Positions 1 to 64,000 of a stretch of 64,000 nt of DNA are shown here, one piece after another. The first letter of the stretch is position 1. Every line of letters begins with the position of its first letter. Below the pieces are notes generated by a model, which saw only the letters and a program-made list of their open reading frames with translations, ran no database searches and had not been told where the DNA came from. The stretch comes from Nemopilema nomurai (lineage: Eukaryota; Cnidaria; Scyphozoa; Rhizostomeae; Rhizostomatidae): NCBI GenBank assembly GCA_003864495.1, contig ML133420.1:3992340-4056339 (forward strand). Reading direction: 5' to 3'. Made by a program: the position numbers and the translations under genes.

Positions 1-173
1 CTCTCGAGGCCGCCAAGTGCAGTGTGAACAGAAAGTCAGGCCAAGCCTTGTTTATTTTGAAATCGCGCATGCATGCAGCTACAAAAGTTGGCGCCAACAG
101 GCGAATTTTTCTTTGTTGATAACCTGGGCCTAAATGCTTATGAGTTAATTTTGATAAAAGTTGAATACTGAAA

Positions 174-302: not shown

Positions 303-354
303 AAAATAGTACTTATTAGAAATGCAATACATTTTAAGAAAAAAACTGCTTGCA

Positions 355-1547
355 AGTAATCAACTTTTATACGCTTTGTCAAAACGCTATACAACTGTGT
401 TTCGTGCCAAATCTCTAATAATGGATTTCTTTCCTGGCGCATCCACCTCAAACGGGGTGTTCGCCATAGATGCACTCTCTCTCCCTCCTCTACTGTATTG
501 TAGCAGAATCCCTAGGAAATATCGTAAAACAAAACAAAACAAAACTATTGATGGTCTAAGGCTCCCAAGTTGTAGCACCGAAGTTAAAATTTCCCAGTAT
601 GCTGACGATACAACCCTGTTCCTTTGCAATAGCTTCTCCGTTGATGAGGCTCTATCCACCATAAAGAATTATGAACTTGGATCTGGTTACAAAGTTAACT
701 ATAATATTGGCAAGTCCTGTGCAAAATGGTACAATAGGCCTTCCTTTCTACCTGCACCTTCGTCCTCCCTGTCTACCCTCCAATGGACCAGCGGCCCCTT
801 GGAGGTTTGAGGTCTACAGTTTGGCCCAAACACCACAGTTGAAAGCTGCTGGATAAAACGGATCGCAAAACTCACCAATAGGCTAGATTCATGGAAACAC
901 CGGCCCTTTTCCCTCCAAAGCAAGTCATTAGTCCTCAACACCGTTGCTCTTTCTGGCCTGGTTTTTTTTGGCACATTTTTTCATCTTCCAGAAACCATAA
1001 AAAACAAGTCAGCAGACTAATCTTTGACTTCGTATGGGCTGGCAAAAACGAACTCGTTGCTCGGAAAGTAACGCAACAGGCCTATGACAGAGGTGAACAA
1101 AACATTGTCGATATTTCTCTCAAAACAGAAGTCTTACATCTGAAATTTCTACAATCTATTGCTGATACTAACTACTCCTCTCCTTGGGTCTACTTTGCCC
1201 GCTATAACATCAGTCTACATCTTAAGAAATATCTTCTATCTGCCAACTTTCTCCATTCAAACACAGTTCCACATGCCTTATCGCCCTACCACAGCGTTCT
1301 TAAAACGGCTAGCTACCTGTAGTCGTGGTCAAAGCGTCGAAGACATCAAAAACGTGTCCATTAGTTGCCCAATGGCTGTAACAGTTTTCTAATCTTTGCT
1401 TTATTTATTCCAACTGTTACTCCCTGACTAGGTCTTCCCCGCTCGCATTGATATTCTGTTTGATCTCCTGCCTTCTACTAGAAAACAAATTAAGCTCCTC
1501 TTTCTATCCGTTTTAAAGATTACTTCTTACCTGCTAGTAATGTATGG
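355..1547 (+). pseudogene. LINE A: reverse transcriptase fragment of a U2-targeted Tx1/L1-like LINE (part 1)
   Basis: This is an ORF2 fragment of a non-LTR retrotransposon that begins inside the reverse transcriptase. A degraded motif B region (about 440-530) precedes an intact motif C, QYADDTTLFL (about 595-630), which holds the catalytic aspartate pair. The thumb and connection follow (WIKRI, RLDSWKH, SLVLNT), then the C-terminal stretch with SPWVYFARYN and HLKKYLL (about 1180-1230). The frame changes near 350-470, 810-860 and 1000-1100, so nothing functional is made. The protein is closely similar to LINE D on the minus strand at 60515-63559, for example IDGxRLP...TEVKIS, IVNYDIG-like and HLKFLQxIAD segments. 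The fragment is interrupted at 1547 by a P-like transposon and resumes at 3107 as its 3' end. Confidence 0.85.
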
Positions 1548-1611
1548 CATAGTCAATAGAAAAACACTGGTCTGGAAAGACGGGAAATATCAAAAGAATA
1601 TCTTTTTTTAG

Positions 1612-2235
1612 GATCTAAAAAGTGAAAAATGACAGAGTTTTTATATGCGAAAAACATTTCCTACCAGAGCAAATAAAAATTTGTAAGTATCTAGCATTCG
1701 ATTTGATGCTAATAGCCTATTTAAATTTGTGATTTTCCTATTATCAGGCCCCAAACAATTTTAACTGTAACCCAGCCCTTTCAAAATGAATTTCGTTCTG
1801 ACGACTCTGCATGTTTGCGAAAACGATATTTTCTTATCCTGAGAATACTTTCTCAGAACAGGATTGGGTATATTGGCCTGTCTAAAAGACTATCAAATTT
1901 TATCTAATTTTTTTCCCTTTATAGTTCATTCAAAGATGAAAGGGCTGAAGCCTGGGGCTCTACCAAGTATCAATATGCCAATAAAAAGCTTCCAGAAAGA
2001 GAAAAAAGAACGAAGGCACATTCCTATGGGGAGAGATTTGTTACCGGAAGAGGAATCCAAAAATATGATTCATAAATCTTTTGATGAGTTATGCCAGAGG
2101 GTGAAGGCACAAAGATTTTATGGAATTTGGTCCCCTGATATCTCCTCTTTAATCCTGCTTTGCTCTTGCACACTTTTTCACAATTTGTACACTTGTAATC
2201 ATCAATTTCAGCCTTTAAATAAATATATGCAATAA
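1612..2235 (+). pseudogene. THAP-domain transposase remnant in two exons
   Basis: The first exon (1612-1682) follows a T-rich tract ending in AG. It encodes DRVFICEKHFLPEQIKI, the Cys-x2-His half of a THAP zinc finger. It ends at a consensus donor GTAAGT (1683). A pyrimidine-rich acceptor (TTTCCCTTTATAG, ending 1924) opens the second exon at 1925. Joined in phase, it continues HSKMKGLKPGALPSINMP, the THAP C-terminal LKPGAxPSI motif. A basic, lysine-rich stretch follows (QKEKKERR) before a stop at 2235. The N-terminal C-x2-4-C exon was not found upstream, and no RNase H-like catalytic core follows. The splice sites are predicted by eye. The gene is a fragment of a P-like transposase. Confidence 0.6.
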
Positions 2236-3076
2236 GAAACTCAAAAATCTTCTCACAGTATGTTAAAGAATATTTATCATATGCAATTTCAAAATTGCAA
2301 TTTTGTTAATGATACAAATAATTCAATGTAAATGCCTAACCGATTTCATTACAGCGAACAAAACAAAGCAAAGGTAACTCTGGGGGCCTAAGATCGATTC
2401 TGAGAAAGCTACTCAAGCTAATTGAAAGGTTTGATTTATTGAATATGTGAAACTAGTACAGCGTTGGAAACTGAATTGGTTGTCGCTGAAACCTTGGGTA
2501 TCAAGGATTTAATTTTTCTCAAGTGTACATTTACTTTGATCTTACAGAATCTATTGTATACCGATGTTGATGTCTCCATGCAGAAAACATACCAACAATC
2601 AGGGTCCAAAATTTGGCCGATAAGAAAAAAGAAAGCTGAACAGCATTGCCGACTTAATGGAATCTATTTTCTAATCTTTCAGGAAAAAATTAAAAAACGG
2701 AAGTATGTGGTCAGTGGTAAATTTTGTTGAGAGACCAAGCAAGATGGAAAGAAACAACCAGTAGTTGTTAGAAATACGTATGTGACCCTTATCAGTCCTT
2801 GATTGGTTTAAATCTTCTATTTAGGCTTACCTCGTCGTCAAACTCATGTTGCAAACTCTCTCTAACTCGAGAGCCTCAAGGATTGCGCCCAAATTTTCAT
2901 CTGATACCTCTGAATTTTTATTATGTTGGGAAATTCTATGAGAAGATCTGCGACGTTCGTTGTTTTCGGCCATTATATAACACTTCCGTGCAAGGCTGTG
3001 CACGGATATTGTCATGTGACTAGGGAATTCAACATGCTTTCAAATGATGCGAAAAGCCATTTGATGTTTTCCGGCC
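2236..3076. other. Non-coding interior of the P-like element
   Basis: This AT-rich sequence lies between the THAP remnant and the right terminal repeat. Short open frames (2464-2730 plus, 2827-3015 minus) show no recognisable motif. It may hold decayed 3' exons of the transposase, but nothing supports a specific call. Confidence 0.4.
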
Positions 3077-3106
3077 TTCCAGACCAGTGTTTTTCTATTG
3101 ACTATG

Positions 3107-3378
3107 TGTATGGTAACTGTTGTACTGATTTTTCGCTTTGCTTGTCCTGTTAACGTTTTTTTGTCATAACGTAGATTTGGTACTCCGTAAATCATTAAAC
3201 TGTAATTTTTGTCTATGTAATTCGCGTCATTGTCAATAGTCATTAGTTTTGTATTGCAAGGGGGACCTCTGCACAAAAGGGGCAGTTGTCCCTCTTTACA
3301 TTGCCAATATCATGTAATTTTTCATGAATGATTGTCCCTGTCCCTACTGTTTATCAGAGGGCAGGAATGGGGATAAAA
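3107..3378 (+). mobile_element. LINE A 3' end and 3' UTR, abutting U2 snRNA
   Basis: The sequence resumes LINE A after the P-like insertion and runs to a short A-rich end (GGATAAAAA). It then joins nucleotide 35 or 36 of U2 snRNA. A likely stem-loop occupies about 3261-3293 (GGGGACCTCTGC pairing imperfectly with GCAGTTGTCCC), followed by a second small CCCT/AGGG pairing near 3329-3363. LINE reverse transcriptases of several clades recognise structured 3' UTRs, so these hairpins are candidate recognition elements. The final A could belong to the tail or to U2 position 35. No 3' part of this family is present elsewhere in the window for comparison. Confidence 0.6.
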
Positions 3379-3515: not shown

Positions 3516-3892
3516 AAACAGATAAACACAGACAGACATTAGTGGGTGGGTCATTCTTTCGTTCGCTCTTGTCATTTTCAATGTCATTGCCATTGCAAGA
3601 TTGTGCGTATTGTAGGATTATATTTGTAGCGTAGCATTTTTGTAGCATGGATTATTGTGGTGTGGATAAATTGCTTGCATTATATTTTGTAGTTGTTGTT
3701 TTCTGTTCCTTTTCTCTTGTCTCTCACTCTCATACATCTAATTATACCGCAAACAATTGTGTTTCAGTTGTGTTACGGTCAGTTTTAGCGAAACAATTCA
3801 CTGGTCTTAAATTTACCATGGCTCCAGTCCAGGCGCTGCTTGGATTCAGACCTAATCCGTAGTAGTAGTAGTAGCAGCAGCAGCGCAGAAAC
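3516..3892. other. Unassigned spacer between U2 fragment and LINE B
   Basis: No gene is recognised. It contains a short trinucleotide run (GTA then GCA units, about 3859-3885) just before LINE B ORF1. It could be U2 3' flank, LINE B 5' UTR or both. Confidence 0.4.
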
Positions 3893-4825
3893 ATGAGCAT
3901 CCTTCAGATGACTACAAGCGCTAACAAAGTCTCATCCCACCTCAGCCAGACAGTCACGACACAGTTGACTTTAAAGAGATAATTGGCTACTTCCACTCCG
4001 AATTTAAAGATTCAACTTGCATTCAACAACTAATGTCACTTGCCGCCCTGCTAGGTAGGCGCAAATAAAACATCATTTTCTCCAAACCCTCTATGGTGGA
4101 CAGACTTATAGAGTCTTTGATCAAACAACCATCACTGCCTGCTGACAACCCAGGTAATAACCATACCCGATGGAACACCAGACATCTCTGATAATGAAAT
4201 TGGTAATGCTTTATCAAGATACGGAACGGTGACACGAGTTTGGAAACAAACATGGAAATGATTCCCGAATATTTTCAATGGTAAACGGCTTGTGACCATC
4301 TTTCCTTCAGGAGGTACGAAAGTACCACCTTTTATCATTTTGCAGGACAAAAAAATATCGATTTCATACAGGGGTAAGCCTGTGTTCTGCAATATCTGTA
4401 TGTCAGATACCCACAGATCTTCTGACTACCCCTCAAGACACATTAGCCATTGCTACCTTAGTGGCTCGACAGAACACAGTAAGAAGGATTGTGGACAGTC
4501 TGTTCCCCCAAGACGAAGTAGAGGCAGGCTCTTCAGCGGCGAAATCGAAGCTGTTGATTCGCCAGCAGCGGAGAGTACCGAGAAAACCGAAGAAATAACA
4601 GACCTGGAAGACATCAGACCTCCCGCTCTTATAAATGAACAAGAAGACATACCCCAACCATACCACCAACCCCAAACGATTCTACCGAAGCTCTTCCGAA
4701 ACCCATTCTTGAGGACCAACAGAAAAATTTGCACACCCTAAACCGAAGCCACAAAGACCACAAAACCCTCTGCCACAGCCGGGACCAAAACACCAAAAGA
4801 CTATCCCCCCTTCGCTAATAATTTA
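3893..4825 (+). pseudogene. LINE B ORF1: gag-like RNA-binding protein with zinc knuckles
   Basis: An ORF1-like frame begins near ATG 3893 and is broken by stops and frameshifts near 3930, 4066, 4190 and 4262. The clearest part (4292-4741) carries two cysteine-rich knuckles: CNICMSDTHRSSDYPSRHIS leading into HCYLSGSTEHSKKDC. An acidic, proline-rich tail follows (about 4540-4740). This layout fits the nucleic-acid-binding ORF1 protein of L1/Tx1-type LINEs. The first knuckle is degenerate, with histidine and cysteine spacing altered and tyrosine where cysteine is expected (DYPS). It belongs to a different family from LINEs A, C and D: its knuckle and RT sequences do not align closely. ORF2 follows after a large loss of the endonuclease domain. 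Confidence 0.7.
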
Positions 4826-4887
4826 AAAGCAGTTCTGTCTTCTTATGCCCTAGAAGATATCTGGCGTGTTCAAAAACCCTTTCTGTA
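4826..4887 (+). pseudogene. LINE B ORF2: remnant of endonuclease domain
   Basis: The frame reads AVLSSYALEDIWRVQKPF up to the SINE-like insertion. It resembles the C-terminal part of an apurinic-type endonuclease (the DxWR segment upstream of the TWxxxxxxSRID motif). After the SINE the frame resumes (FTFSSSPVH, about 5633). The N-terminal two-thirds of the endonuclease is missing between ORF1 and this point, so this copy is internally deleted. Confidence 0.55.
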
Positions 4888-5608
4888 TTTTACTTTGTCA
4901 GCTGGGTCTCCTGTGACTCCTACTGGTAACCATGTAGCCCAGTACTAGCTGTTCATGGTCGGGTTGTCGGCGACTAAACCGGCTCCCCCACTTTGCCCAT
5001 GCATTGTGAGGAGGGTGACGGGGACACCCAGCAGGATAAAATACAAAACCTGACAAAGGGCGGATGAACCCTGCGAGGGTGAACGGCCATCCCCTGCAGC
5101 CAACGCTGGTGCCAACTAATTGACCTTGTCTTTCCTTGGATTTCATCAGCTGCGATCAAGGGTGGCTCCGATAGCTTGGGCAACTTTGGAGCCCTCACTC
5201 GTGCCTGGGGTAGTAGAAGAGGAAATGGAGAGGACATTTCATCTCGGCGATCATCGTTGGTACACGGCAGGAGGCAGTCTACGGGTGATAAGCTCTAGCC
5301 AAATTGGCGTACAGGCTGATTGCCACGGATCTTCTGCGTCGGTGGGAGGGGTCCTCTCGCCCCAATGCGAGGATGGCTCAGTGGTTAGAGGCGCTGACTA
5401 CGGACCCAAGGGTGTCCTCAAACTACCTTCGGATGCAAGGTAGAAACAAATCAAATCAAATCACAAATCAAATCAAATGGTCAGCTATCGCCCGCCTCAA
5501 GCCGGGCAGCCCTCGGTCAATAAGGTGCCAACCCGTCACGTCTCCCGCTACGACTGGGTGGTCGGAGTGACTCGTGACGTTAATCTATCACCTGCTACAC
5601 AAATAAAT
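4888..5608 (+). mobile_element. SINE-like non-autonomous retroposon with 16-bp target-site duplication
   Basis: The insert is bracketed by a perfect 16-bp direct repeat AAAAACCCTTTCTGTA (4872-4887 and 5609-5624) and ends in an AAATAAAT-type tail. Both features are typical of LINE-mobilised retroposons. It lies in the ORF2 of LINE B on the + strand. It is more GC-rich than its surroundings and has no coding frame of note. An internal match to the tRNA box A consensus, TGGCTCAGTGG (5374-5384), is followed by GGTTAGAG-like tRNA sequence, but no clear box B was found. An AAATC-repeat tract lies at about 5446-5477. A short inverted pair (CGTCACG near 5537, CGTGACG near 5572) may form a 3' hairpin. 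The unusual internal position of the A box suggests a composite element. Confidence 0.8.
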
Positions 5609-5624
5609 AAAAACCCTTTCTGTA

Positions 5625-7405
5625 AGGAATTTACATTCTCTAGTTCTCCAGTTCATTTAGCTGAATTGATAAATTTTACATTTCTTGGAATTTTGGCGAC
5701 ATTTTTAATATACCTCGAATCGACCCATTCCCCCACTCTGATCATGATATAATTTCCCTTGCCCTCAATTTCTCAGCCCTTTAACATGGCCCGGTATATG
5801 GAAATTAAATACTTCTATTTTGAAAGAGCAAGAATTCATCAGCTCTATTAATAAATTTATCACATATGGGAACAAGTCTCTCTCTCCCTCACTTATCGAG
5901 TGGTGGGAACACGGCAAAAAATTTTTTGTTGACATTGCAAAAACATATTCAAGAAACCGAAAGAAACAATTTCTCCGTAAAAAATCTAAGTTATTCAAAC
6001 AACTCAGAACTGGACAAAAAAGGCAGAGAGTTCAGGGGACCCCCCGATACCTGAAGCTTTACAAACACGTAAGCCACAAAGTTAAATTCCTGGAAGCCTC
6101 CGAAGCATAAATTAGATCAAAAGCTAAATGGTCCGAACAAAGTGAACAAGTTACAAGATATTTTTGCTCCCTTGAAAAGAAACGACAAAGCGACCGCGTC
6201 ATGAAATCAATAAAAGATCAGTATAATAAATCTCCCTGACCCAACCGAAATAGTCAATGCTGTCAAAGAGTTTTATGCTTCTCTATATAAAGAAGAGCCG
6301 GTTGACTCTAGCCTTCAAGACGCTCTTTTGCAAAAAGTAACAACGCAGCTCTCAGAAACGAAAGAGAACATTTGCGAAAGCCCCCTCACCCTTCAAGAAG
6401 TAAACGTTGCCTTATCAACTATGATAAATGGAAAATCTCCTGGAATGGACGGATTACCGTGCGAATTCTATAAAAAAATTTGGAAATCTCTTGGAAAACA
6501 TATCCTTCTTGTTATCAACCATTGCTTTAATACTGAAACTCTTACCTGCATTGATATGTTGCCTTATTAAAAAAGGAGAACGAGAAGACATCCAAAACTG
6601 GCGCCCCCTAAGCCTCTTAAATTGTGATTAAAAAATAATAGCCAAAGTTCTAGCAAATCGCCTTTTGTAGGTCCTAACTAGCATTATAGCAGAAGACCAA
6701 ACTTGCTCTGCTCCTGGTGGCTCAATTTTAGGCAATTGCCATGCTTTACGTGATATTACTCAATTCTCTGAAGATGAAAATACAGTTAAGTTAAATGTAA
6801 CGAGTTTATCTCCGATTCCTTCGCCCCAAGCAGAGGTGTCAGACAAGGTTGCCCTCTCTGCCCTTCTTTATGTTCTCATTACTGAGGCTTTTGCAGCTAA
6901 TGTCCGCAGTGACCCCGCAATTAAAGGTGTAACTGTTAACCAAACTGAATTCAAAATAATACAATACGCAGACGATACTACCCTTCTCCTTCAAGATAAC
7001 CAATCCCTACTTGCAACTGCAAAGCATATAAATAATTTCGAAAAAGCCTCTGGAGCTAAAATTAACAATGTTAAAAGTGAAGGCTTGGTAGCTTTAAAAA
7101 GCGTTTCGACTCCCCTCTAGGTTTTAACTGGAAAAAGAAGTCACTCAAAATCCTCGGCCTTTTTATTAACCAACTTGTAAGCTCTGCACTTTGTTATACG
7201 GCTTTGGTTTTCCCCATACCCCAATGGGCCGTCAAACAACTTGATGAAAAACTTTGGTATTTCTTTTTTAACGGCAAATGACCCCTGATCCCTAGATCAC
7301 AAGCTAAACTTCCTTATCAAGAAGGTGGCCTCAATGTTCTAGATATAGAGAAGAAATGTAACAGCCTCCTTTTATCATGGCTACCCAAACTCTTTGCCCC
7401 CGAAC
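5625..7405 (+). pseudogene. LINE B ORF2: endonuclease end, linker and reverse transcriptase, broken
   Basis: The endonuclease end (to about 5760) is followed by the charged linker (KEQEFISSINKF, EWWEHGKKFF, about 5820-6110). The N-terminal RT blocks come next: LTLQEVNVALSTMINGKSPG with MDGLPCEFYKKIW (6370-6480) and NWRPLSLLNCD (6597-6630). Motif A (the first catalytic aspartate) is missing, lost in a deletion near 6790. The frame restarts at motif B (GVRQGCPL-like, in a shifted frame, about 6830-6860) and then carries IIQYADDTTLLLQ (about 6955-6990), motif C. The thumb continues to 7405. Multiple stops and shifts show long inactivity. A MULE-like transposon interrupts it at 7406. Confidence 0.85.
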
Positions 7406-13427: not shown

Positions 13428-15066
13428 ATGGTAGAAGGTGTTTCAAAGACGAAGAAAAGATCACTCGGTAGGCAATGCGCTGGATGGATCGCCATCCGGC
13501 CTACATTTCTTCAGATTCCCACAAAAGAACCCCAAGAAGCTTCGTTGGTGTAACCTCATCAAACGTGCAGATGGACGTGACGGTCTTAATGTTACACTGT
13601 CTACATTCCTTTGTGAAGACCATTTTACTGATGCGGATATTAGCAGGTATCCAAATCAGTGGCGTCTGAAGACTGGAGCTGTCCCTTCTTTGAATCTGTT
13701 CAGTAGCGTAGATCGGTTGCCAAGAGTATCCCGCAAAGCGCCAGCTGAACGTACGTTTTCTTCCTCTGCATCAGCGACTACAATCTTCGATGATGATGTT
13801 TCTCCCTTGGCTTCTAATGTAATGGAATCCTCGCTACAATTATCAACTGATGATTCGCCAACAACTTCAGTTTCTACGCAAACTGAATTTTCTTTTGTCA
13901 GTTCTCCAATTTACATTCCTTCTTCCTTTGACCAAAACAAGGAGTGCGACCATGAATACTCCTCTTATACACCTCACGAGAACGATCTTTTTAATATTTG
14001 TAACCAGCATGACCATCTTTCAACAAAGACCAAGGAACTCTCTTTGCAAGTTGACAAACTATCCAAACAAATTGGTGACTTGGAACAACAAATTTCTCAG
14101 CTGAAAAGCTCTCTCTTCTCAATCGATAAACTGGAAAAAAATGATGCTGCTGTCAGATTTTACACTGGCTTTCAAAATTTTTCTTCTCTTCGTGCCTTGT
14201 TTGAGTATTTCCAGCCAAAGCTTGATCGTATTCTTTATTGGCGTGGGCCTACATCTTCCAAGGTTTCAGATCTTTCCTATCAACAGTCCTCTCAATCTCA
14301 GAAACCTGGTCCAAAATGCAGCCTTTCACAATTAGAAGAATTTATTTTTGTATTAATGAGACTCAAAGTTGGTTTATTTATGAATGATTTATCAGACAGA
14401 TTTGGAATCTCTACTGGACATGCTTCAAAAATTTTTACAAGTTGGATTAACTTTTTATTTCATGAACTTCCTCTTTTGTTTCCGTTTCCATCTCAAGAAA
14501 GAATACGAAAAGATATGCCACAGCAATTCAAAGATTATCCTACTACGAGAATCATTATTGACTGTACCGAAATTTTTACTGAAATACCATCCTCACTTAA
14601 GTCTCAGTCTCAAACTTGGTCCCAATACAAACATCATAACACCTGGAAAGCCCTTGTTGGAATCTCACCAACAGGCTGTATTACTTTTGTTTCAAAGCTT
14701 TGGTCTGGCAGAGTGTCAGATAAAGAAATTACTCAGAAGTGTGGTGTTTTGCAACTTTTAGAGAATGGAGACAATATCATGGCCGATAGAGGATTTGACA
14801 TCTCTAATATTCTTCCTCCTGGTGTATCTCTTAATATTCCTCCTTTCAAAGGCACTAGAAGCCAGCTAACAGCAGAAGAAACAGCCCGAATTGCAGCAGT
14901 ACGCATTCATGTTGAAAGAGCTATTGGTCGTGTAAAGAATTTTCATATCCTGGATGGAGTCATATCTTTAAGTTTACAACCTATTTTGAACCAAATTTTT
15001 TCAGTATGTTGCCTTCTAACTAATTTTCAGCCATTTCTAGTTCAAAATTCTAACAATAAATCTTAA
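13428..15066 (+). CDS. THAP-domain DDE transposase (DDE_Tnp_4 type), N-terminal frameshift
   Basis: The enzyme would excise and insert the element. From ATG 13428 the native frame gives MVEGVSKTKKRSLGRQCA. A shift near 13480 then enters the long frame (to stop 15066), so the N-terminus is damaged. The THAP finger keeps its first Cys (QCA), FRFPQKN, the W of RWCNLI, CEDHFTD and LKTGAVPSL, but its second Cys is lost at the shift. A coiled coil (about 14030-14130, KELSLQVDKLSKQIGDLEQQ) follows. A helix-turn-helix region precedes the catalytic core (LSDRFGISTGHASKIF, 14385-14435). DDE residues: IIIDCTEIF (14555), IMADRGFDI (14780) and VERAIGRVK (14910). The 5' end could be a real mutation or a sequence error; the remainder is open over 520 codons. 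Confidence 0.85.
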
Positions 15067-18802: not shown

Positions 18803-19026
18803 TCATTGCCAACCAACGAGAAAAGCCTACTTGTAGGTAGGTAAGTGGCCGCTCTATTGGTTGTTGATTTATTTACTGATTGATGTTTTGATGATTTGAT
18901 TACTGATTACTGATTTGTTGCTGATTGAAAAAGAACAATGAGACAAGAGCAAAGGAACCAGTCGTAGCCCTGCAAGCAACGAAGGAAGGTGGTGGAGAGT
19001 CTCAACTGCTTAAGGGATATTCGGTA
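18803..19026 (+). promoter_or_regulatory. U2 snRNA 5' flank (promoter-bearing), upstream of LINE C
   Basis: This 224-bp segment closely matches the reverse complement of 63758-64000 and ends at U2 nucleotide 1. Shared landmarks are CTACTTGTAGGTAGG-type repeats, ATTACTGATTACTGATT, GCAAGCAACGAAGGAAGGTG and CTTAAGGGATATTCGGT just before the U2 start. snRNA proximal elements usually lie about 40-65 bp upstream, here within about 18960-18990. The exact element cannot be assigned by eye. Conservation beside two separate LINE copies shows it is U2 gene flank rather than LINE sequence. Confidence 0.65.
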
Positions 19027-19060
19027 TCGCTTCTCTGCCTTTTGGCTAAGATCAAGTGTG
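19027..19060 (+). ncRNA. U2: U2 snRNA nucleotides 1-34 (5' fragment, target flank of LINE C)
   Basis: ATCGCTTCTC then a T for the usual G, then GCCTTTTGGCTAAGATCAAG and TGT: 33 of 34 bases match U2 snRNA 1-34, including stem-loop I and the start of the branch-site recognition element. The U2 sequence stops here and LINE C begins at 19061. The rest of this U2 copy is absent. Confidence 0.92.
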
Positions 19061-19245
19061 GTCTAGCTGAGAGCCAAGAAGCCCACACAGCCTCCAACAA
19101 GTGGTGGACGAATGCTCAGCCGTTCTTCTTAGGAAGGCGGCTGTAACACCATTGAGGAGGCATCAATGGCCGAGAAGTGTGCCGCTGGGGATAATTCGCC
19201 CTCATGCGGCGAAGATCGAGTAATTAATGAGTTGCCGATTCGGAC

Positions 19246-20470
19246 ATGAGTTCCGCCACTGAGCGTCGTCGCTTGAGGGACGATAGGTCGAAAATGACAA
19301 AGCCCTGCGATGAGCGGATTATAGATCGCCGCCCCTTTCGTGTTGGGGAGAAGGCCATCATGCCCACACAAACCATGCCAGCGCCGACAAAGCCTGAAGC
19401 ACCGCCTGCCTCAAGTCGCTAGCCGCAGAGAATCTATACTGCTGCTGCTGGAACAGTCTGTGAGTTGTTTCTGGGCCTCTCTCTGGGACTTTGTCAAGAC
19501 CCCTCGGCAGAATTGGGAGCCTGGAATGGCTAACCCTCTTCCCGTATGGGTGAGGGTGTTCCACAAGCCGACAGAGCTTCGCTCGGAGGTCCTCAAGAGG
19601 AGGTTTGCAGCCTTTGGTGAGGTGCTGTTCCTCAGGGAGAACACGTACCCTGGAACATGCATCAAAAATGGCGTCGTCACCATGAAAATGGTGATGACAG
19701 AAGCCATCCCTAGCTTTGTCCATATTGGGCCACATTGTCTAGTGCTTTGCCATGACAACCAACCGCAGACATGTCGTAAATGCGACAGTGTGGCCCATGT
19801 GGCAGCAAATTGTTGCATTCAATGTTGCTTCAACTGCGGAGCCGGGGGTCACATAAATGCCAAGTGTCCATAGAAAAGTAATTGCCAGGGCTGCGGATCA
19901 GTCGAGCACCATCTTGCTCAGTGTGTGACCATGTGGGACCCTGATACAGGCAGCACTGCTGAAACCTCCCCTCTGAGGACGAGTATGGCCCAGATGAGAC
20001 CACTGTTGCACGGGTACAGTCGACCCAGGAAAACCCTGAAGACCGTCTGCTAGCACCAACAGCAGCACCGGCGCCAGCACCAACAGCAGCACCGACAACA
20101 GTTCCAGGACCTGCACCAGGACCTTCACCAGCACCAGTCAGGGAATCACCTGCCGACTTTATGCCAGCTCCTACGGACCCGATGCCGGCAACCACCACCA
20201 TTGGGCCAGGTACAGAAGACCAACCTCAAACTGGTATGAACTCTCCCGGCACCTGTATTCTTCTCCCGCTGCTTGCTCTCCCTCTATCCTTTCTCAAAAC
20301 TCTACCCCGGCAGTGGACCAGGGTGTGCCAACGGCTTCTAAGAGGGCCCTCCAGGATAACAACCTCTCTGAGGTGTCTGTCGTAAGGAGGCCCTCTACTA
20401 AAAAGAGGTCAAAAGCATGCTGTCCCTCCTCAAATATCCTGTTGGAGCCCGATAACATTGGATTCCCCCA
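19246..20470 (+). pseudogene. LINE C ORF1: gag-like protein with CCHC zinc knuckles
   Basis: ATG 19246 begins MSSATERRRLRDD, matching the ORF1 start of LINE D. After a frame change near 19300-19420, the RNA-binding region reads NWEPGMANPLPVWVRVFHKP (19510) and GEVLFLRENTYPGTC (19617). Then come knuckles CRKCDSVAHVAANC (about 19772) and CFNCGAGGHINAKC (about 19825), both with correct C-x2-C-x4-H-x4-C spacing. A third, CQGC...EHHLAQC-like, lies at 19885-19925 after an in-frame stop. A Pro/Ala-rich repeat tract (GCACCAACAGCAGCACC units, 20050-20140) forms the C-terminal part. Such proteins bind LINE RNA. Stops at about 19420 and 19874 inactivate it. Confidence 0.8.
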
Positions 20471-20482
20471 ACCGTGTGAGTC

Positions 20483-21126
20483 ATGACAACAGTTAAAATA
20501 CTATCAATAAACACGCATGGCCTACATGACTCCTCTAAGTGTGCTGCTATAGTGGACTGGCTTGCTAACCGAAATGTAAGCATAATTTTCCTTCAAGAAA
20601 CCTATTTTGCTAGCTATCTCGGCCACTTGAAATCCATCTAGAATGGCGCCATCTTCTCATACTTTGGTAGCAACCATAGCAGAGGCTTTGTCATCCTCAC
20701 TAAAAAGTACCCCACTTTTCGCTTTTCAAAAGTCACCAAGGACAGTAATGGATGGTGGCTCAACCTGGAGCATTATGTCAGTGACTTCAAACTTCAACTG
20801 ATTAACGTCTATGCTCCTGCCCTCAAATCCCTTAATCACCTGCTGCAAACTTACAAACTTACCAACGCTTTTCGTTCCATGCACTCTTCAGCACGTACCT
20901 TTAGTTGGACCAACTCGAAGGTTTCTTCCCGACTTGACAAATTCTACGTATCACAGGACATTTTATCCCGTACATCTCACTGCCCTATTACAGTTTTACC
21001 TTTTTGTGATCACGATGCCCCTACACTTACTTTCAAACAACCCCACTCCCCCTCATAAGGTCGAGGAACATGGAAACTGAACACCAGTCTTCTCTCTAAC
21101 ACGCTTTTTACGTCCAAGCTTAAGGG
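20483..21126 (+). pseudogene. LINE C ORF2: apurinic-type endonuclease domain, internally deleted
   Basis: ATG 20483 opens MTTVKILSINTHGL, followed by IIFLQETYFAS (catalytic Glu in LQET), with a stop near 20641. Next are GFVILTKKYPT and LQLINVYAPA. The frame is then cut, rejoining at LLQTYKLTNAF near 20840: the segment with the Asp-x-Asn motif is missing. The C-terminal motifs are RTFSWTNSKVSSRLDKFYVS (about 20895-20955) and FCDHDAPTLTF (the SDH-like His, 21003). The fold nicks target DNA; in U2-specific elements it would set the cleavage site. This copy is dead. Confidence 0.8.
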
Positions 21127-21480
21127 TTTCCTTGTGTTAGAATCTTTTGTTTTTGTTGTTACAGTAACGTAATGGACGCTCGTTCCAGTCCCCTTTGTTA
21201 TTATAAACGCGTGTAATTGTTTTTGTTATGACTAATCTTATCTTATCAACTAATGAGTGGCTCGTTCTAGCGGTAATTATAATGTAGTTGCCTAGAAGTG
21301 TAACGGCATTTGCTTATGGCTACCATGATGAGTAGTAGTTGGTTGGTTGTATATTGTATATATCTATATTCAAGTTGGTTGTAAATAGAGTGGATTTGGT
21401 TTTAGGTACATATTTCGTGGATATCTCAGTCTCTTATATTTCGTCCAACCCTACTGTTATAAACTCTCCACAACACCTTG
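21127..21480. other. Unexplained insert in LINE C ORF2
   Basis: About 350 bp without LINE homology or coding motif separates the endonuclease end (SKLKGF) from the linker/RT start (LAREKCCERTF). It is AT-rich with TATA-like repeats (about 21350-21370). No target-site duplication or terminal repeat was found. Confidence 0.4.
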
Positions 21481-22059
21481 CATTTTGGGTCACTGCGTCC
21501 ATTTATCCAAAAAATTGGCTAGAGAAAAATGCTGCGAAAGAACTTTCTTGGAACAAGAACTTCAGCTCGCTACAGTTTACACAGACATTGTAGTACAAGA
21601 CAGCAGAGCGAGAATTCGCGCTAAAGCTCTTGAATACGAACAAAACGAGAAACCCTTGTGGTACTTTTTCGGTCAAGAGAATTGCAGACAGTCCAAAAAA
21701 GTCATTAGGCAGTTAACAACCCCAGATTGAACACAATTTGAAGGTAATCAGGAACTGCTTGGCTGCATCACCTCATTCTACGAATCTTTGTATTCCTCGC
21801 ATTCTGTGAACCCTAATAGCCAATCCATTCTTTTAAATAGTATAAACCGTTTCCTGATAACCTTAGAATGGTACTTGATGAACCACTTTCCGAAAACGAA
21901 TGCCTTAAGGCCCTTTTCCTGATGAAACCCGATAAATCCCCAGGCTCTGATGGCCTGCCGGCTGAGTTTTACGAGCACTTTTGGGATACTATTGGCGAAG
22001 CTCTTGTCTGTGTCCTCAATTTCTGTTTTTCTTCCAGTCTTCTAACGGAAACCATTTAG
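21481..22059 (+). pseudogene. LINE C ORF2: linker and N-terminal reverse transcriptase
   Basis: The linker reads LAREKCCERTFLEQELQLAT and RAKALEYEQNEKPLWYFFGQ (to about 21690). RT entry blocks follow: CITSFYESLYSSHSVN (21765), LSENECLKALFLMKPDKSPG, SDGLPAEFYEHFWDTIG (21895-21990). The sequence is cut at the satellite boundary (about 22059) before RT motif A. One frame change occurs near 21850. The block matches LINE D at about 61960-62060 (minus strand) nearly base for base. Confidence 0.82.
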
Positions 22060-25000
22060 TTGGTAATGTAGTTAGTAAAATTTTGCATCATATAAGTTCA
22101 ACTATAAATTTTTAGCTTCTAGTTGATATTGTATATCAAAAAAGGTTGTGGAGTGACAAATAAATCTCGTTCAAGAGGGTCTCATAAACGAAATGATAAT
22201 CCGGTGAATATCTAGTGAATGCAGTTAATAATCCTTTGCCTCTGATAAGTTCAACTATAAATTGTTAGCTTCTAGTTGAACATTGTTTATTTAAATGTTT
22301 GTGAAATGATAAATAACGCTAGTTTGACCGTGCCTCATAATAAAATAAATGACTTTGGTTCTATAGCTGATAATTATCTGGTGAATGCAGTTAGTAATAT
22401 TTTGCATCAGATAAGTTCAACTTTAAATTTTTAGCTTCTAGTTGAACATTGTATATTAAATAAGGTTGTGAAGCGATAAATTACTCTGATTCAACAGTGC
22501 CTCGTTATAAAATATGTGACTTTGCTTCTCTAGCTGATAATTATCTGGTGAATGCAGTTAGTAATATTTTGCATCATATAAGTTCAACTATAAATTTTTA
22601 GCTTCTAATTGATATTGTATATCAAAAAAAGGTTGTGAAGTGATAAATAACTCTGATTCAACAGTGCCTCGTTATAAAATAAATGACTTTGGTTCTCTCT
22701 AGCTGATAATTATCTCGTGAATGCAGTTAGTAATATTTTGCATCAGATAAGTTCAACTATAAATTGTTAGCTTCTAGTTGAACATTGTATATAAAATATG
22801 GATGTGGAGTGATAAAAAACTCTGGTTCAAGAGGGTCTCATAAACGAAATGATGATCTGGTGAATATCTGGTGAATGCAGTTAATAATCCTTTGCCTCTG
22901 ATAAGTTCAACTTTAAATTATTAGCATCTAATTAAAGATTGTTGATTAAAATGTTTGTGGAATGATAAATAACTCTAGTTTGACAGTGCCTCAAAATAAA
23001 ATAACTGACTTTGCTTCTCTAGTTGATAATTATCTTGTGAATGCAGTTAGTAAAATTTTGCATCATATAAGTTCAACTATAAATTTTTAGCTTCTAGTTG
23101 ATATTGTATATCAAAAAAGGTTGTGGAGTGACAAATAAATCTCGTTCAAGAGGGTCTCATAAACGAAATGATAATCCGGTGAATATCTGGTGAATGCAGT
23201 TAATAATCCTTTGCCTCTGATAAGTTCAACTATAAATTGTTAGCTTCTAGTTGAACATTGTTTATTTAAATGTTTCTGAAATGATAAATAACGCTAGTTT
23301 GACCGTGCCTCATAATAAAATAAATGACTTTGGTTCTATAGCTGATAATTATCTGGTGAATGCAGTTAGTAATATTTTGCATCAGATAAGTTCAACTTTA
23401 AATTTTTAGCTTCTAGTTGAACATTGTATATTAAATAAGGTTGTGAAGCGATAAATTACTCTGATTCAACAGTGCCTCGTTATAAAAGATGTGACTTTGC
23501 TTCTCTAGCTGATAATTATCTGGTGAATGCAGTTAGTAATATTTTGCATCAGATAAATTCAACTATAAATTGTTAGCTTCTAGTTGAACATTGTATATTA
23601 CATAAGGTTGTGAAGCGATAAATTACTCTGATTCAACAGTGCCTCGTAATAAAATATGTGACTTTGCTTCTCTAGCTGATAATTATCTTGTGAATGCAGT
23701 TAGTAAAATTTTGCATCATATAAGTTCAACTATAAATTTTTAGCTTCTAGTTGATATTGTATATCAAAAAAGGTTGTGGAGTGACAAATAAATCTCGTTC
23801 AAGAGGGTCTCATAAACGAAATGATAATCCGGTGAATATCTGGTGAATGCAGTTAATAATCCTTTGCCTCTGATAAGTTCAACTATAAATTGTTAGCTTC
23901 TAGTTGAACATTGTTTATTTAAATGTTTGTGAAATGATAAATAACGCTAGTTTGACCGTGCCTCATAATAAAATAAATGACTTTGCTTCTTTAGCTGATA
24001 ATTATCTGGTGAATGCAGTTAGTAATATTTTGCATCAGATAAGTTCAACTTTAAATTATTAGCTTCTAGTTGAACATTGTATATTAAATATGGATGTGGA
24101 GTGATAAAAAACTCTGGTTCAAGAGGGTCTCATAAACGAAATGATGATCTGGTGAATATCTGGTGAATGCAGTTAATAATCCTTTGCCTCTGATAAGTTC
24201 AACTTTAAATTATTAGCATCTAATTCAAGATTGTTGATTAAAATGTTTGTGGAATGATAAATAACTCTAGTTTGACAGTGCCTCATAATAAAATAACTGA
24301 CTTTGCTTCTCTAGCTGATAATTATCTGATGAATGCAGTTAGTAATATTTTGCATCAGATAAGTTCAACTATAAATTGTTAGCTTCTAGTTGAACATTGT
24401 ATATTACATAAGGTTGTGAAGCGATAAATTACTCTGATTCAACAGTGCCTCGTAATAAAATATGTGACTTTGCTTCTCTAGCTGATAATTATCTTGTGAA
24501 TGCAGTTAGTAAAATTTTGCATCATATAAGTTCAACTATAAATTTTTAGCTTCTAGTTGATATTGTATATCAAAAAAGGTTGTGGAGTGACAAATAAATC
24601 TCGTTCAAGAGGGTCTCATAAACGAAATGATAATCCGGTGAATATCTGGTGAATGCAGTTAATAATCCTTTGCCTCTGATAAGTTCAACTATAAATTGTT
24701 AGCTTCTAGTTGAACATTGTTTATTTAAATGTTTGTGAAATGATAAATAACGCTAGTTTGACCGTGCCTCATAATAAAATAAATGACTTTGCTTCTCTAG
24801 CTGATAATTATCTGGTGAATGCAGTTAGTAATATTTTGCATCAGATAAGTTCAACTTTAAATTATTAGCTCCTAGTTGAACATTGTATATTAAATATGGA
24901 TGTGGAGTGATAAAAAACTCTGGTTCAAGAGGGTCTCATAAACGAAATGATAATCTGGTGAATATCTGGTGAATGCAGTTAATAATCCTTTGCCTCTGAT

Positions 25001-60300: not shown

Positions 60301-60514
60301 TCACTGTTCAGGAAGAGCCATTTTATTGAACTTCTTTGGTTAATTTTCACGGTTTACTAGATGCAGTAATGTATTTACTGCATTTATCAGACACTGTTTA
60401 ACCAGCGAAACAGAATCATTAATATATTTTCTCAATCATTTTGAACTTTTAGTGCGGTTATATTTACCGTGGCAACAAGGCACTGCTCAGTAAGATTAGC
60501 TTCTTTACAAACAG
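48301..60514 (-). repeat. Satellite block II (525-bp tandem repeat, about 23 copies)
   Basis: Units begin CAGCCAGATTGACTGAATTA at 48302, 48829 and then about every 525 bp to 60263; the last is cut at 60514. Identity between units is very high, mostly single-base changes (e.g. AGAGCC or AGATCC at one site). Within the unit, submotifs such as CACTGTTCAG, AGGCACTG and TTATCAGA recur. Read on the minus strand, the unit shares landmarks with block I: CTAGAAGCTA(G/A), CATTTCGTTTATGAGGG, CAGAGTTATTTATCATT and AACTTATCAGAG. It is thus a diverged member of the same family in reverse orientation. One copy (about 59160-59222) is shortened. Confidence 0.93.
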
Positions 60515-60588
60515 AATGCTAATGTCTGAAAGAGCGGAAAAATCGGGGAGCAGCTGCTGGAATAGAGGCTGTAGAGAAGCAAAGACCG

Positions 60589-62065
60589 TCATTGAAATTG
60601 GGTAGTCAATGAAGATGTGTTTAATGTCCTCAATATGCCCAACATGCTGAAAGAGGTGAATGAGTCTTTGTGCTGATTACAAAGAGAGACAAAACGAGTG
60701 TAGTGAGGAGAAGTTGATAGGGCGTGCAGAGATGAGTTCGAATGAAGGAAGTAGGCGAGTTGGAGATATTTCTTCAAATGTAGGCCTATGTTATATCGGG
60801 CAAAGTATACCCAAGAGGAGAAGTAATAACTGTCGGCAATAGCTTGGAGGAATTTAAGATGCAATGCGTTTGTTTTTAGAGAGACGTCAGCTATGTTTTG
60901 TCCACCTATGTCGTTTGGCTTGAACATTAGCTTTCGGGCAAGGAGGTTGGAAAGTGGAATATAGTGCCCACAAAAACAGGACCAGATAGGGTAACAGTGT
61001 TTAGAATAAGGGCTTTGCCTTGTAGGGAAAGGGATAAATGTTTCCATGCGTTAAGCCTGTTGGATAGTTTTTCGATCCGTTTTATCCAGCAACTTTCAGC
61101 TGCGGACACCGAACCAAATTGGAGACCGAGAATTTCAAATGGACCAGAAGTCCATTGTAGTGATAATAGAGGGGAAGCAGAAAGAAAGGGAGGTTAGCTG
61201 AACCATTTTTCGCAGGACTTGCCGATATCATAATTTACTATAGACCCAGAGCCGAGTTTGTATACTTTGATAGTAGATAAGGCTTTGTCTAACGAAAACT
61301 TGTTGCCAAGGAAAAAGGTTATGTGTCGTCTGTGTACTTGGAGATTTTAACTTCCGTAGCTGTGCCAGGTAACCGAATGCCATCTATGCTTTTGTTTTGC
61401 CTGATGATGTTTCCTAAGGTCTCTGCCACAATACAGTTAAAAAGAGGGGAAAGGGGACAGCCTTGGCGAACACCCTGTTTTAGAGTAATGTGTCGAGAAA
61501 GGTACCCGCTGTTTGAAATTCGACCTGAGACGCTGGTGTATAACGTCTTCACAAAACCAAGGAAAATTGGGCCAAAAGTCATCTTTTCCAAAACTTGGAA
61601 CAGAAAATCCCAATTGACATGGTCGAAAGCTTTCTCTTGGTCAATTTTCAGCAGCGCGAGGGGGAGACTTTTGGCCTGACAATAGTCCCTAGCGTCTCGG
61701 GCAAGCATGAGGTTCTCAAAGATTGATCTCCCTGGAACAGAACATGTTTGGTCCGGGTGAAGGACAAAGGGAAGTGCTTCTTGGAGCCTGTTGGCAAGTG
61801 ATTTGGTTCCGATTTTGTAATCTACGTTTAAAAGGGATAATGGGCGCCATTTTTTTTTAATCTTTGCTGTCGCCTTTCTTAAACAGGAGAGAGATCATTG
61901 CCAACCGCATGGTTTCTGTTAGCAGACCGCAGGAGAATCAGAAATTGAGGACACGGACAAGAGCTTCGCCAATGGTATCCCAAGGTGCTCGTAAAACTCA
62001 GCTGGGAGGCCATCAGAGCCTGGGGACTTATCGGGTTTCATCAGGGAAAGGGCCTTAAGACATTC
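60589..62065 (-). pseudogene. LINE D ORF2: reverse transcriptase and C-terminal region
   Basis: RT start: KPDKSPGSDGLPAEF-like (about 62040-61995). Motif A is ALLKIDQEKAFDHVNWDF (about 61655-61600) with its catalytic Asp, then PIFLGFVKTLYTSVSGRI. Motif B is LKQGVRQGCPLSPLFN (61485-61430). Motif C is ISKYTDDT (about 61345-61325), where Thr replaces the usual Ala of YADD. The thumb (CWIKRIEKLSNRLNAWKHLS, 61090) and C-terminal HLKFLQAIAD and SSWVYFARYN blocks follow. Stops and shifts occur near 61325, 61870 and 60950. The motif C change and the frame breaks show it is inactive. Confidence 0.85.
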
Positions 62066-62290
62066 GTTTGCGGATGTTTATGCCACCAATATAGTTGCCA
62101 CCAGAGAATGAGAAGATGGCGCTATTCCAGATGGATTTCATGTGGCTGAGATCCTGCTCGCTAGCAAAATAGGTTTCTTGAAGGAAAATTATGCTTTCAT
62201 TTCCGTTAGCTAGGCAGTCTACTATAGCGGCAAACTTAGAGGAATTACGTAGGCCATGTGTGTTTATTGATAGTATTTTAACTGTTGCTA
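62066..62290 (-). pseudogene. LINE D ORF2: N-terminal endonuclease remnant
   Basis: The region aligns with the start of LINE C ORF2: TVKILSINTHGLRNSSKF and IIFLQETYFAS, with LQET catalytic Glu. The ATG of LINE C is ATA here, so the start is lost. A deletion at about 62070 removes the rest of the endonuclease and joins directly to the RT entry block. Confidence 0.7.
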
Positions 62291-62374
62291 TGCCTCACAC
62301 GGTTGGGGGAATCCAAAATTATCGGGCTCTAACGTGAAATTGGAGGAAGGACAGAGCATGCTTTCAACCTCTTT

Positions 62375-63559
62375 TTAGTAGAGGGCCACCTTATGGCAGA
62401 ACCTCAAAGATATTGTCTTCCTGGAGGGCCATCTTAGAGGCTGTTGGCACACCCTGGTCCACTGCCGGGGTAGGGTTTTCAGGAAGGATAGAGGGAGAGC
62501 AAAAATCGGGAGAAGAAGACAGGTGCCAGGAAAGATCATACCAGTTCCTTGATCCATCTTCTCTACCCGGCCCACTGGTGGTGGTTGCGGGCGTCGGGTC
62601 CGATGGAGCTGGCATGAGTTCGACAGGTGGTTCCCTGACTGGTGCTGGTTCTGGTGCAGATGGTCTTCAGGGTTTTGCCAAGTTGGCTGTACCCGTGCAA
62701 CAGCCGTCTCCTCTGGGCCGGATTCGTCCTCAGCAGTGCTGCCTGTAACAGGGTCCGACACGGTCACACACTGAGCAAGATGGTGCTCGGTTGATCTGCA
62801 GCCCTGGCAACGACTGTTCTCGGGACACTCAGCATTTATGTGACCCCCTGCTCTGCGATTGAAGCAACGTTGAATGCGACAACTTGCTGCTACATGGGCC
62901 ACACTGTTGCATTTACGACATGTCTGCGGTTGCTTGTCATGGCGAACCGCTATACAATATGGCCCAATATGGACAAAGCTAGGAATGGCTTCTGTCATCA
63001 CCATTTTCATGTTGACGACACCATTTTTGATGCGGGACACCCATACGGGAGGAGGGTTAGCCATTCCAGGCTCCCAATTGCGCCAAGGGGTCTTGACAAT
63101 GTCAAGCCCCAAGAACTTCTCCTTCTCTGCCAGAGGAGGGAAGGTAATTTCCCCGTCTCAATTTGGGAGGGTCTGCAAATGAGTGGGGACAATCCCATGG
63201 TCTGCAAGCTTCCCTATGAGTGCCCGGGCATTAATGCCCTGATGGGAATGAATGCACACAGACCTGGGACGGTCCTGGCACAGCGGCATGTTCACTTGGA
63301 GATTGTCCGAGCGGCCCAGAAATAACTCACTGACTGTTACAGCAGCAGCAGCATAGCTTCTCAGCGGCTGGTGACTTGAGGCAGACGGTGCATCAGGCTT
63401 GGACGGCGTGGGCCTGGTCGGCGCGGGCATGGTTTGTGCGGGCACAACGGCGTTCTTTCCAACACGAAATGGGCCGGAACCCACATTACTACGAATGTGG
63501 GACTTTCTCAAAATGTACTTGTGGTCCCTCAAGCGACGACGCTCAGTTGCGGAACTCAT
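62375..63559 (-). pseudogene. LINE D ORF1: gag-like protein with CCHC zinc knuckles
   Basis: ATG at 63559 begins MSSATERRRLRDHKYILRKS and runs to 63158. It then shifts frame and continues from 63112 with GLDIVKTPWRNWEPGMANPP to 62375. Knuckles: CRKCNSVAHVAASC (about 62930), CFNRRAGGHINAEC (second Cys replaced by Arg) and CQGCRSTEHHLAQC (about 62805). A segment present in LINE C (RVFHKP to YPGTC) is deleted. The C-terminal part is Gln/Pro-rich. As in LINE C, it would coat LINE RNA. Confidence 0.83.
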
Positions 63560-63723
63560 GTCCGAATCGGACGACTCATTTTCAACTCAATCTTTGCACA
63601 CGCGGGCAAGTCGCCGCGAGCGGCACACTCCTCGGCCATCTCGGGAGCCCCTTCAATGGTGTTATAGCCGCCCCTACAAGTAAGGACGACTAAGCATAAA
63701 TCCACCACTTGTTGGAGGCGTTC

Positions 63724-63757
63724 ACACTTGATCTTAGCCAAAAGGCCGAGAAGCGAT
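63724..63757 (-). ncRNA. U2: U2 snRNA nucleotides 1-34 (5' fragment, target flank of LINE D)
   Basis: On the minus strand all 34 bases match U2 snRNA 1-34 (ATCGCTTCTCGGCCTTTTGG, then CTAAGATCAAGTGT). LINE D starts at the next base. The cut is at the same U2 position as in LINE C and complements the U2 3' portion found after LINE A. Confidence 0.95.
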
Positions 63758-64000
63758 ACCGAATATCCCTTAAGCAGTTGAGACTCTCCACCACCTTCCT
63801 TCGTTGCTTGCGGGGCTACGACTGGCTCCTTTGCTCTTGTCTCATTGTTCTTTCTCAATCAGCAACAAATCAGTAATCAGTAATCAGTAATCAAATCATC
63901 AAAACATCAATCAGTAAACAAATCAAAAACCAATAGAGTGGCCACATACCTACCTACCTACCTACCTACGTAGTAGGCCTTTCTCGTCGGTTGGCAATGA
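63758..64000 (-). promoter_or_regulatory. U2 snRNA 5' flank upstream of LINE D
   Basis: Reverse complement of the U2 upstream region seen at 18803-19026, with a longer GTAG-repeat run (about 63950-63975) and an extra ATTACTG unit. Similarity continues to the window edge, so the flank probably extends further. The proximal snRNA promoter element should lie within about 63795-63825. Confidence 0.65.

What the first reader, a model, noticed from the sequence alone, without database searches (positions are those of the whole stretch)
19027..19246. LINE C inserted exactly after U2 snRNA nucleotide 34
U2 nucleotides 1-34 plus a conserved upstream flank lie directly before the LINE 5' end, and the U2 sequence stops at position 34. 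The same boundary recurs at LINE D and, from the other side, at LINE A (U2 from nucleotide 35). Three junctions at one position argue for sequence-specific target use rather than chance. Keno elements of the Tx1 clade are known to use U2 genes as targets. Whether this family is Keno or a new lineage is open.
Basis: partly seen in the sequence, partly recalled or inferred. Interest (0 to 1): 0.85.

Follow-up and report, generated by a model that had tools for sequence, protein, structure and literature searches.

The report
Two LINEs split a spliceosomal-RNA array
The genome around this window holds a long row of repeated genes for two splicing RNAs, U1 and U2, in which one family of jumping elements sits at a single position of U2 and a second, different family sits at a single position of U1, most likely because each element's own cutting enzyme recognises its gene; a U2-seeking element of this type was known, a U1-seeking one appears to be new.

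Summary
U2 nt 1-34 lies at 19026-19059 (one mismatch), directly before LINE C; LINE D shows the same left boundary, LINE A the right one (U2 from nt 35). The window flanks a tandem array whose ~2.04-kb unit carries U2 and also U1. Genome-wide, 40 LINE-C-type 5' ends were scored: 39 abut U2 nt 34; the 40th, a 141-bp match on another contig, follows a U2-like 23-mer. Of 40 3' ends, 39 read as A-rich tail then U2 nt 35/36; one runs into N. The protein has an AP-like endonuclease, as Keno has and Utopia has not; two copies have an open ORF2. The new result is a second LINE, of which broken pieces also lie in this window. All 16 scored 3' ends run into U1 nt 26, all 12 scored 5' ends follow U1, and five copies read at both ends have a 14-bp target duplication (U1 nt 26-39). 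It falls in a separate RT clade. Six literature searches listed no U1-targeting LINE. Some copies are array duplicates or haplotype pairs, so copy numbers are not insertion numbers.

The parts
361..3378 (+). LINE A: broken copy of the U2-specific LINE (pieces 361-1285, 1330-1523, 3107-3367, then A-rich tail)
   Evidence: blastn with element el1, 67-89% identity
3379..3961 (+). U2 from nt 35 onward plus array spacer (unit 35-677), right-hand side of the U2 insertion site
   Evidence: Rfam U2 hit 3334-3531, E 1.1e-16; 76% identity to the array unit
4017..7405 (+). remnants of the second LINE (U1-specific family), pieces 4017-4103, 4155-4416, 4814-4886, 5610-6781, 6784-7162, 7166-7405
   Evidence: blastn with LINE2, 68-90% identity
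12321..13255 (+). further LINE2 remnant (element nt 3870-4812)
   Evidence: 83% identity
18148..18512 (+). further LINE2 remnant (element nt 4811-5175); its U1 junction is lost
   Evidence: 92% identity
18528..19025 (+). array spacer upstream of U2 (unit 1415-1749 and 1840-2039)
   Evidence: 84% and 93-94% identity
19026..19059 (+). U2 snRNA nt 1-34, left-hand target half
   Evidence: Rfam U2, E 0.0018 (below the family's gathering score), plus direct reading
19060..22067 (+). LINE C: 5' part (element nt 1-3232) of the U2-specific LINE, broken
   Evidence: 83-91% identity to el1; junction among the 35 exact junctions
60508..63719 (-). LINE D: U2-specific LINE, broken, first 30 nt missing
   Evidence: 87-93% identity to el1
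63724..63757 (-). U2 snRNA nt 1-34, left-hand target half of LINE D
   Evidence: 34 of 34 identical
63758..64000 (-). array spacer upstream of that U2
   Evidence: 97-98% identity to unit 1705-1761 and 1825-2039

Best explanation
LINE C is a broken member of a LINE family whose copies sit between nucleotides 34 and 35 of U2 snRNA genes, while a second LINE family sits at nucleotides 26-39 of the U1 genes in the same tandem array; each would reach its gene by a site-specific nick from its own AP-like endonuclease followed by target-primed reverse transcription. Shown: the array unit (U2 at unit 1-189, U1 at 796-959), the exact junctions of both families, no target duplication at U2 (A35 cannot be told from the A-rich tail), a 14-bp duplication at U1, AP-like endonuclease + RT + zf-RVT in both ORF2s, copies with open ORF2, and no scored end of either family away from the array contigs except one LINE1 fragment. 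Inferred: that the endonuclease gives the specificity; that at U2 the bottom strand is nicked at 34/35 (or 35/36) with the top strand cut opposite; that at U1 the bottom strand is nicked at 25/26 and the top strand after 39; and that transcripts probably start at the snRNA promoter region that stays upstream of the inserts.
For: U2 side: 81 U2 genes intact across the site against 122 places of U2 1-34 and 120 of U2 35-68. Of 40 scored 5' ends, 34 have the exact U2(25-34)|element junction, 5 more were read from the DNA with one substitution in U2 1-34, and 1 on C76 follows a U2-like 23-mer, 20 of 23 identical. Of 40 scored 3' ends, all 40 flanks were read: 39 are followed by U2 from nt 35/36 and one runs into N. 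U1 side: 12 of 12 scored 5' ends follow U1 (7 cleanly after nt 39, 3 with a tail-only insert after U1 nt 27, 2 old ones after about nt 38), and 16 of 16 scored 3' ends are followed by U1 from nt 26; five copies were read at both ends and have a 14-bp repeat. Domains. Open ORF2 frames. Separate RT clades. Independent arrival: subfamilies 88-91% alike over 201 bp at the same base, and two LINE2 5' modules (65% alike in the first kb, 75% in the second) at the same U1 junction.
Against: Many copies are near-identical, and some look like duplicates of an interrupted unit (LINE2 at C53:3795812 and 3811598, no substitution in the aligned blocks) or haplotype pairs (C53/C87 with equal 6,400-bp spacing), so the number of independent insertions is lower than the number of places and was not counted. 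The three tail-only inserts may be one event. One search scored 40 of 44 candidates and only 40 of 474, and all these searches give lower bounds. No activity was measured. One LINE1 fragment lies outside the array (C76).
Confidence: 0.88

Rival explanations
1. Passive spread: each LINE inserted once (or a few times) in a U2 or U1 gene by chance, and unequal exchange or gene conversion then copied the interrupted unit through the array; there is no target specificity.
For: Several interrupted units are 99.5-100% identical and evenly spaced (LINE2); 13 of 40 LINE1 5' ends are 100% identical over 201 bp without gaps.
Against: Subfamilies only 88-91% alike occupy the same base; two LINE2 5' modules, 65-75% alike over the first two kb, share one U1 junction; a tail-only insertion hit U1 a second time 12 nt away (seen at three places, perhaps one event); A-tail lengths vary; and no scored end of either family lies outside the two array contigs except one LINE1 fragment.
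Confidence: 0.07
2. Survivor bias: the LINEs insert widely, but only copies in the redundant array are tolerated and kept.
For: General plausibility only; multicopy genes tolerate inserts.
Against: Survival cannot select one nucleotide position within U2 or U1. In the 200 kb read, no copy of either family was found with its 3' end in the spacer; two 5'-shortened LINE2 copies (from C53:3734568 and 3832044) begin in spacer but end in U1 like the rest.
Confidence: 0.03
3. The U2-specific LINE is Utopia, the restriction-like-endonuclease lineage that uses U2.
For: Utopia and Keno are reported to have identical 3' U2 flanks (PMC4640811, passages and section 6).
Against: ORF2 begins with an AP-like endonuclease (PF03372, E 1.1e-12 on an open frame), and the best solved relatives are L1 ORF2p, with R2 far weaker.
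Confidence: 0.01
4. U2 1-34 is part of the LINE's own 5' UTR.
For: Every scored LINE1 5' end carries it or something like it, even the C76 fragment.
Against: 81 genes have these 34 nt continuing as U2 without a LINE; upstream lies the array's spacer; U2 35+ lies on the other side. Transduction of a short U2 piece remains possible for C76 alone.
Confidence: 0.01

Closest known systems
Keno (U2-targeting LINE with AP-like endonuclease; Tx1 clade by recall; frogs, fish, lancelet, hydra)
   Same: AP-like endonuclease, insertion inside U2, U2 continuing after the 3' end; the 2015 paper describes Keno in these terms (PMC4640811 passages and section 6)
   Different: RT relationship to named Keno sequences not tested; host unnamed; here the array is shared with a second LINE. 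The exact Keno cut position is not in the text I read (the paper counts nt 39 for Phytophthora Utopia, against nt 35 here)
Utopia (U2-targeting, restriction-like endonuclease)
   Same: target gene U2; 3' flank said to be identical to Keno's
   Different: endonuclease type; Utopia generally encodes one protein, whereas here there are two ORFs
Dada-U1 (DNA transposon in zebrafish U1 genes)
   Same: target gene U1
   Different: DDE transposase, proposed 6-bp duplication GCGAAT/C of U1 (PMC3706591 passages); the present U1 element is a LINE with a 14-bp duplication at nt 26-39
Mutsu (5S rRNA), Dewa (tRNA-Leu spacer)
   Same: LINEs aimed at multicopy small-RNA genes (targets as named in a PMC3706591 passage; Tx1 membership recalled)
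   Different: other targets; sequences not available for comparison
R1/R2 in 28S rDNA
   Same: several site-specific LINE families sharing one tandem gene array at different sites
   Different: the host genes here are spliceosomal snRNA genes; R2 has a different endonuclease

Membership tests
Keno | non-LTR element with AP-like endonuclease and RT | tested here: met
   PF03372 + PF00078 + PF13966 in an open 1,164-aa frame
Keno | insertion inside U2 with U2 continuing at the 3' junction | tested here: met
   39 of 40 3' ends, the other unreadable
Keno | exact same cut position as named Keno copies | tested here: inconclusive
   the junction TGT|AGTATCTG fits short motifs quoted for Utopia junctions, whose 3' flank the paper equates with Keno's; figures and Keno sequences not held
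Keno | groups with named Keno elements in an RT tree inside the Tx1 clade | not testable with these tools
   no labelled references; closest full-length unnamed relative P0002 is 66% identical over ORF2; one clade member bears the name 'Transposon TX1 putative 149 kDa'
Utopia | restriction-like endonuclease at the C-terminus | tested here: not met
   AP-like endonuclease at the N-terminus, no restriction-like domain reported by Pfam
Dada-U1 | DDE transposase | tested here: not met
   the U1 element encodes AP-like endonuclease + RT in an open 1,271-aa frame
Dada-U1 | 6-7 bp duplication at GCGAAT/C of U1 | tested here: not met
   14-bp duplication GTGATCATGAAGGC, U1 nt 26-39
Site-specific LINE (works like) | copies found only at one nucleotide of a multicopy gene | tested here: met
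   all but one fragment of the scored ends; the searches are lower bounds
Site-specific LINE (works like) | endonuclease cuts that bond in vitro | not testable with these tools
   needs a bench assay

The most novel reading that the evidence does not exclude
Two separate LINE lineages have divided one spliceosomal gene array between them: a Keno-like family that cuts only U2 and a previously undescribed family that cuts only U1, the first LINE aimed at U1 snRNA genes. Both keep copies with open ORF2, and one array-bearing contig (C87) shows no U2 gene intact across the insertion site.
Probability: 0.75. Interest if true: 0.75.

Novelty: new variant of a known kind. Interest (0 to 1): 0.66.

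Why it matters
Site-specific LINEs show how an endonuclease learns one address in a genome, and they are candidates for gene insertion tools. A LINE family for U1 adds a new address. Two families of the same general protein design, living in the same repeat unit but in different genes, give a natural comparison of what sets specificity. Splicing depends on U1 and U2, so heavy occupancy of this array (122 U2 5' halves found, 81 of them in genes intact across the site) also makes testable how a host tolerates and repairs damage to its spliceosomal RNA genes.

Tried and rejected
Utopia: rejected by endonuclease type. U2 piece as LINE 5' UTR: rejected. A hairpin between U2 nt 4-29 and LINE1's first 23 nt looked striking (z -5.0), but other stretches of the element align to U2 equally well (score 25 against 24), 5 of 5000 shuffles fold as well, and LINE2/U1 shows nothing of the kind (2029 of 5000) (an earlier duplex test gave LINE2 134 of 5000); kept as an unexplained observation only. 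Self-cleaving ribozymes at the element 5' ends: Rfam gave only U1/U2 and weak hits below the cut-offs. IMG/VR viral contigs for other U1/U2-inserted LINEs: three DNA patterns had no match, and in one protein search 21 stretches matched a pattern but none encoded a relative. Host identification by mitochondrial COX1 did not complete. A whole-genome protein search with the LINE2 relative P0122 did not complete, so confinement of LINE2 rests on its two end searches.

Full report
What is in the window. Window 19026-19059 is U2 snRNA nt 1-34 with one mismatch; it follows array spacer (18833-19025, 93% identical) and precedes LINE C at 19060. LINE D has the same left boundary on the minus strand (63757-63724, 34 of 34 identical), but its first 30 element nt are missing. 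LINE A ends in an A-rich tail followed by U2 from nt 35 at 3379.

The setting. The window is C53:3992340-4056339 of an unnamed 213-Mb, 226-contig assembly. It lies beside a tandem array at about C53:3.64-3.96 Mb with a unit of about 2.04 kb. Rfam finds both U2 (unit 1-189) and U1 (unit 796-959) in the unit (two loci scanned). U2 is intact across the site at 81 places, all on C53 plus strand, with up to 3 mismatches over 49 nt. U2 1-34 alone occurs at 122 places (95 forward, 27 reverse, 100 listed) and U2 35-68 at 120 (93 and 27, 100 listed), each with up to 2 mismatches; so roughly 41 left halves and 39 right halves stand without their partner. On contig C87 (1.06 Mb, with stretches of N) no U2 intact across the site was found. 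C87 mirrors part of C53: the insertions at C53:3953493/3959893 and at C87:701758/695358 are both 6,400 bp apart. C87 is therefore probably the other haplotype, and some copies are counted twice.

The U2-specific LINE (LINE1). Copy C53:3760426-3766038 is 5,613 bp with its A tail. A 201-bp query of its 5' end gave 40 scored matches of 44 first-look candidates: 24 on C87, 15 on C53 and one partial on C76. Of these 40, 34 appear among the 35 exact U2(25-34)|element junctions (the 35th is LINE D; tally); 5 more, read from the DNA, have U2 1-34 with one substitution. The last, C76, is a 141-bp match behind a U2-like 23-mer, 20 of 23 identical. A 306-bp query of the 3' end gave 40 matches of 40 candidates, all on C53 and C87. 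All 40 flanks were read: 20 of 21 and 19 of 19 show an A-rich tail followed by U2 from nt 35/36 (one with a 5-nt deletion in U2, six with one or two substitutions), and one runs into N. There is no target duplication; A35 could belong to the tail or to U2.

Protein of LINE1. ORF2 has an AP-like endonuclease, RT and zf-RVT. The residues recalled as catalytic for the L1 endonuclease are visible in the alignment to L1. The best solved relatives are L1 ORF2p, with R2 far weaker. ORF1 has a weak CCHC match below the Pfam cut-off. Two copies have an open ORF2 of 1,165 aa stop to stop, one of them re-read as 1,164 aa from its ATG; the other copies I translated are broken. With P0002 as query, all 47 matches reported are on C53 or C87, two of them LINE2 copies, but only 40 of 474 candidates were scored.

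The U1-specific LINE (LINE2). The 7.9-kb spacings in the array led to a second LINE. Copy C53:3795812-3801579 is 5,768 bp; U1 nt 1-39 precedes it and a run of A plus U1 from nt 26 follows, a 14-bp duplication GTGATCATGAAGGC. Its 5' end has 12 matches of 12 candidates and its 3' end 16 of 16, all on C53 and C87 in the array region. All were read, in array DNA (4 of the 12, 5 of the 16) or small fetched flanks (8 and 11): U1 adjoins all 12 and all 16. Of the 12, seven are clean after nt 39, three have U1 1-39 split after nt 27 by a tail-only insert (CCAACG plus A's; perhaps one event, since two of the three are a C53/C87 pair), and two old copies lack about the first 21 element nt. A thirteenth 5' end, C53:3766846, not scored, has a 5' part only 65% alike in the first kb and 75% in the second, but the same first 28 nt and the same U1 junction. 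Five copies were read at both ends; one downstream duplication has one mismatch. One copy has an open ORF2 of 1,271 aa with the same domains. In the 200 kb read, 57 U1 genes are whole across the site, with 4 left and 5 right halves detected at up to 4 substitutions; 15 kb of that stretch is N. In the window LINE2 survives only as fragments without its U1 junctions, so nothing in the window itself shows the U1 target.

Relation of the two. Their ORF2 proteins are 36% identical over 896 aa. In a 181-tip RT tree LINE1 falls with P0002, P0006 to P0009 and P0011 to P0014 (support 0.999) and LINE2 with P0122, P0124, P0125 (1.0), far apart. A 72-tip IQ-TREE gives UFboot 100 for both groups. These trees use homologues of 1,050 aa or more among the listed 120 hits each, so they sample only the best of 3,785 and 2,564 hits. 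LINE1's best relatives (P0002, P0006 and others) and LINE2's best relative (P0122, 85% over full length) share a longest-contig length of 1,619,861, which suggests, but does not prove, one contig of another genome with both families.

How it probably works. Inferred: each endonuclease nicks the bottom strand at its site, the poly(A) RNA is reverse transcribed from the nick, and the top strand is cut opposite (U2) or 14 nt downstream (U1). The spacer upstream of the snRNA gene stays in place before the inserts read, and LINE1's ORF1 begins near element nt 107, so co-transcription from the snRNA promoter is likely but untested. Array exchange would then duplicate and remove interrupted units.

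Compared with what is known. Passages of PMC4640811 say that only Keno and Utopia (U2), Dada-U1 and Dada-U6 had been reported for snRNA genes, that Keno has an AP-like endonuclease, and that Keno occurs in frogs, fish, lancelet and hydra (passages and section 6 read). PMC3706591 passages give Dada-U1 a different U1 duplication; the passages of PMC8869645 and PMC5035012 that I saw mention no U1 LINE. Searches listed no paper on a U1-targeting LINE; I saw listings only, and only 25 of 96, 20 of 35 and 15 of 67 papers. Kojima and Fujiwara 2004 and Repbase were not read, so this absence is not proof. LINE1 is therefore best called Keno-like, and LINE2 a new target variant of site-specific LINEs.

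Noticed in passing
C53:3.64-3.96 Mb, unit in L003 and L010: U1 and U2 genes share one ~2.04-kb tandem unit in the same orientation.
   Followed up: yes
window 19026-19082; L021:5392-5450: The first 23 nt of LINE1 are largely complementary to U2 nt 4-29, so U2 1-34 plus the element end folds into a hairpin at the junction; 5 of 5000 shuffles do as well, and other parts of the element align equally well.
   Followed up: partly
C53:3766846-3772685 against C53:3795812-3801579: LINE2 has two 5' modules, 65% alike in the first kb and 75% in the second, on a 3' part 98-99.7% alike, sharing the first 28 nt; looks like module exchange.
   Followed up: partly
C87:605-956 kb: No U2 gene intact across the site was found on contig C87, while C53 has 81; C87 contains stretches of N.
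   Followed up: partly
C53:3780244, C53:3959893, C87:695358: A tail-only insertion (CCAACG plus A's) after U1 nt 27, just upstream of a LINE2 copy: a U1 gene hit twice, perhaps one event seen three times.
   Followed up: partly
C76:2734273-2734413: Only scored trace of LINE1 outside the array contigs, behind a U2-like 23-mer.
   Followed up: partly
window 13435-15066: Open 543-aa frame with THAP, HTH_Tnp_4 and DDE_Tnp_4 domains: a DNA transposon lying between LINE2 remnants.
   Followed up: no
window 35792-36868: 358-aa frame (minus) with a DUF4371 match just below the cut-off.
   Followed up: no
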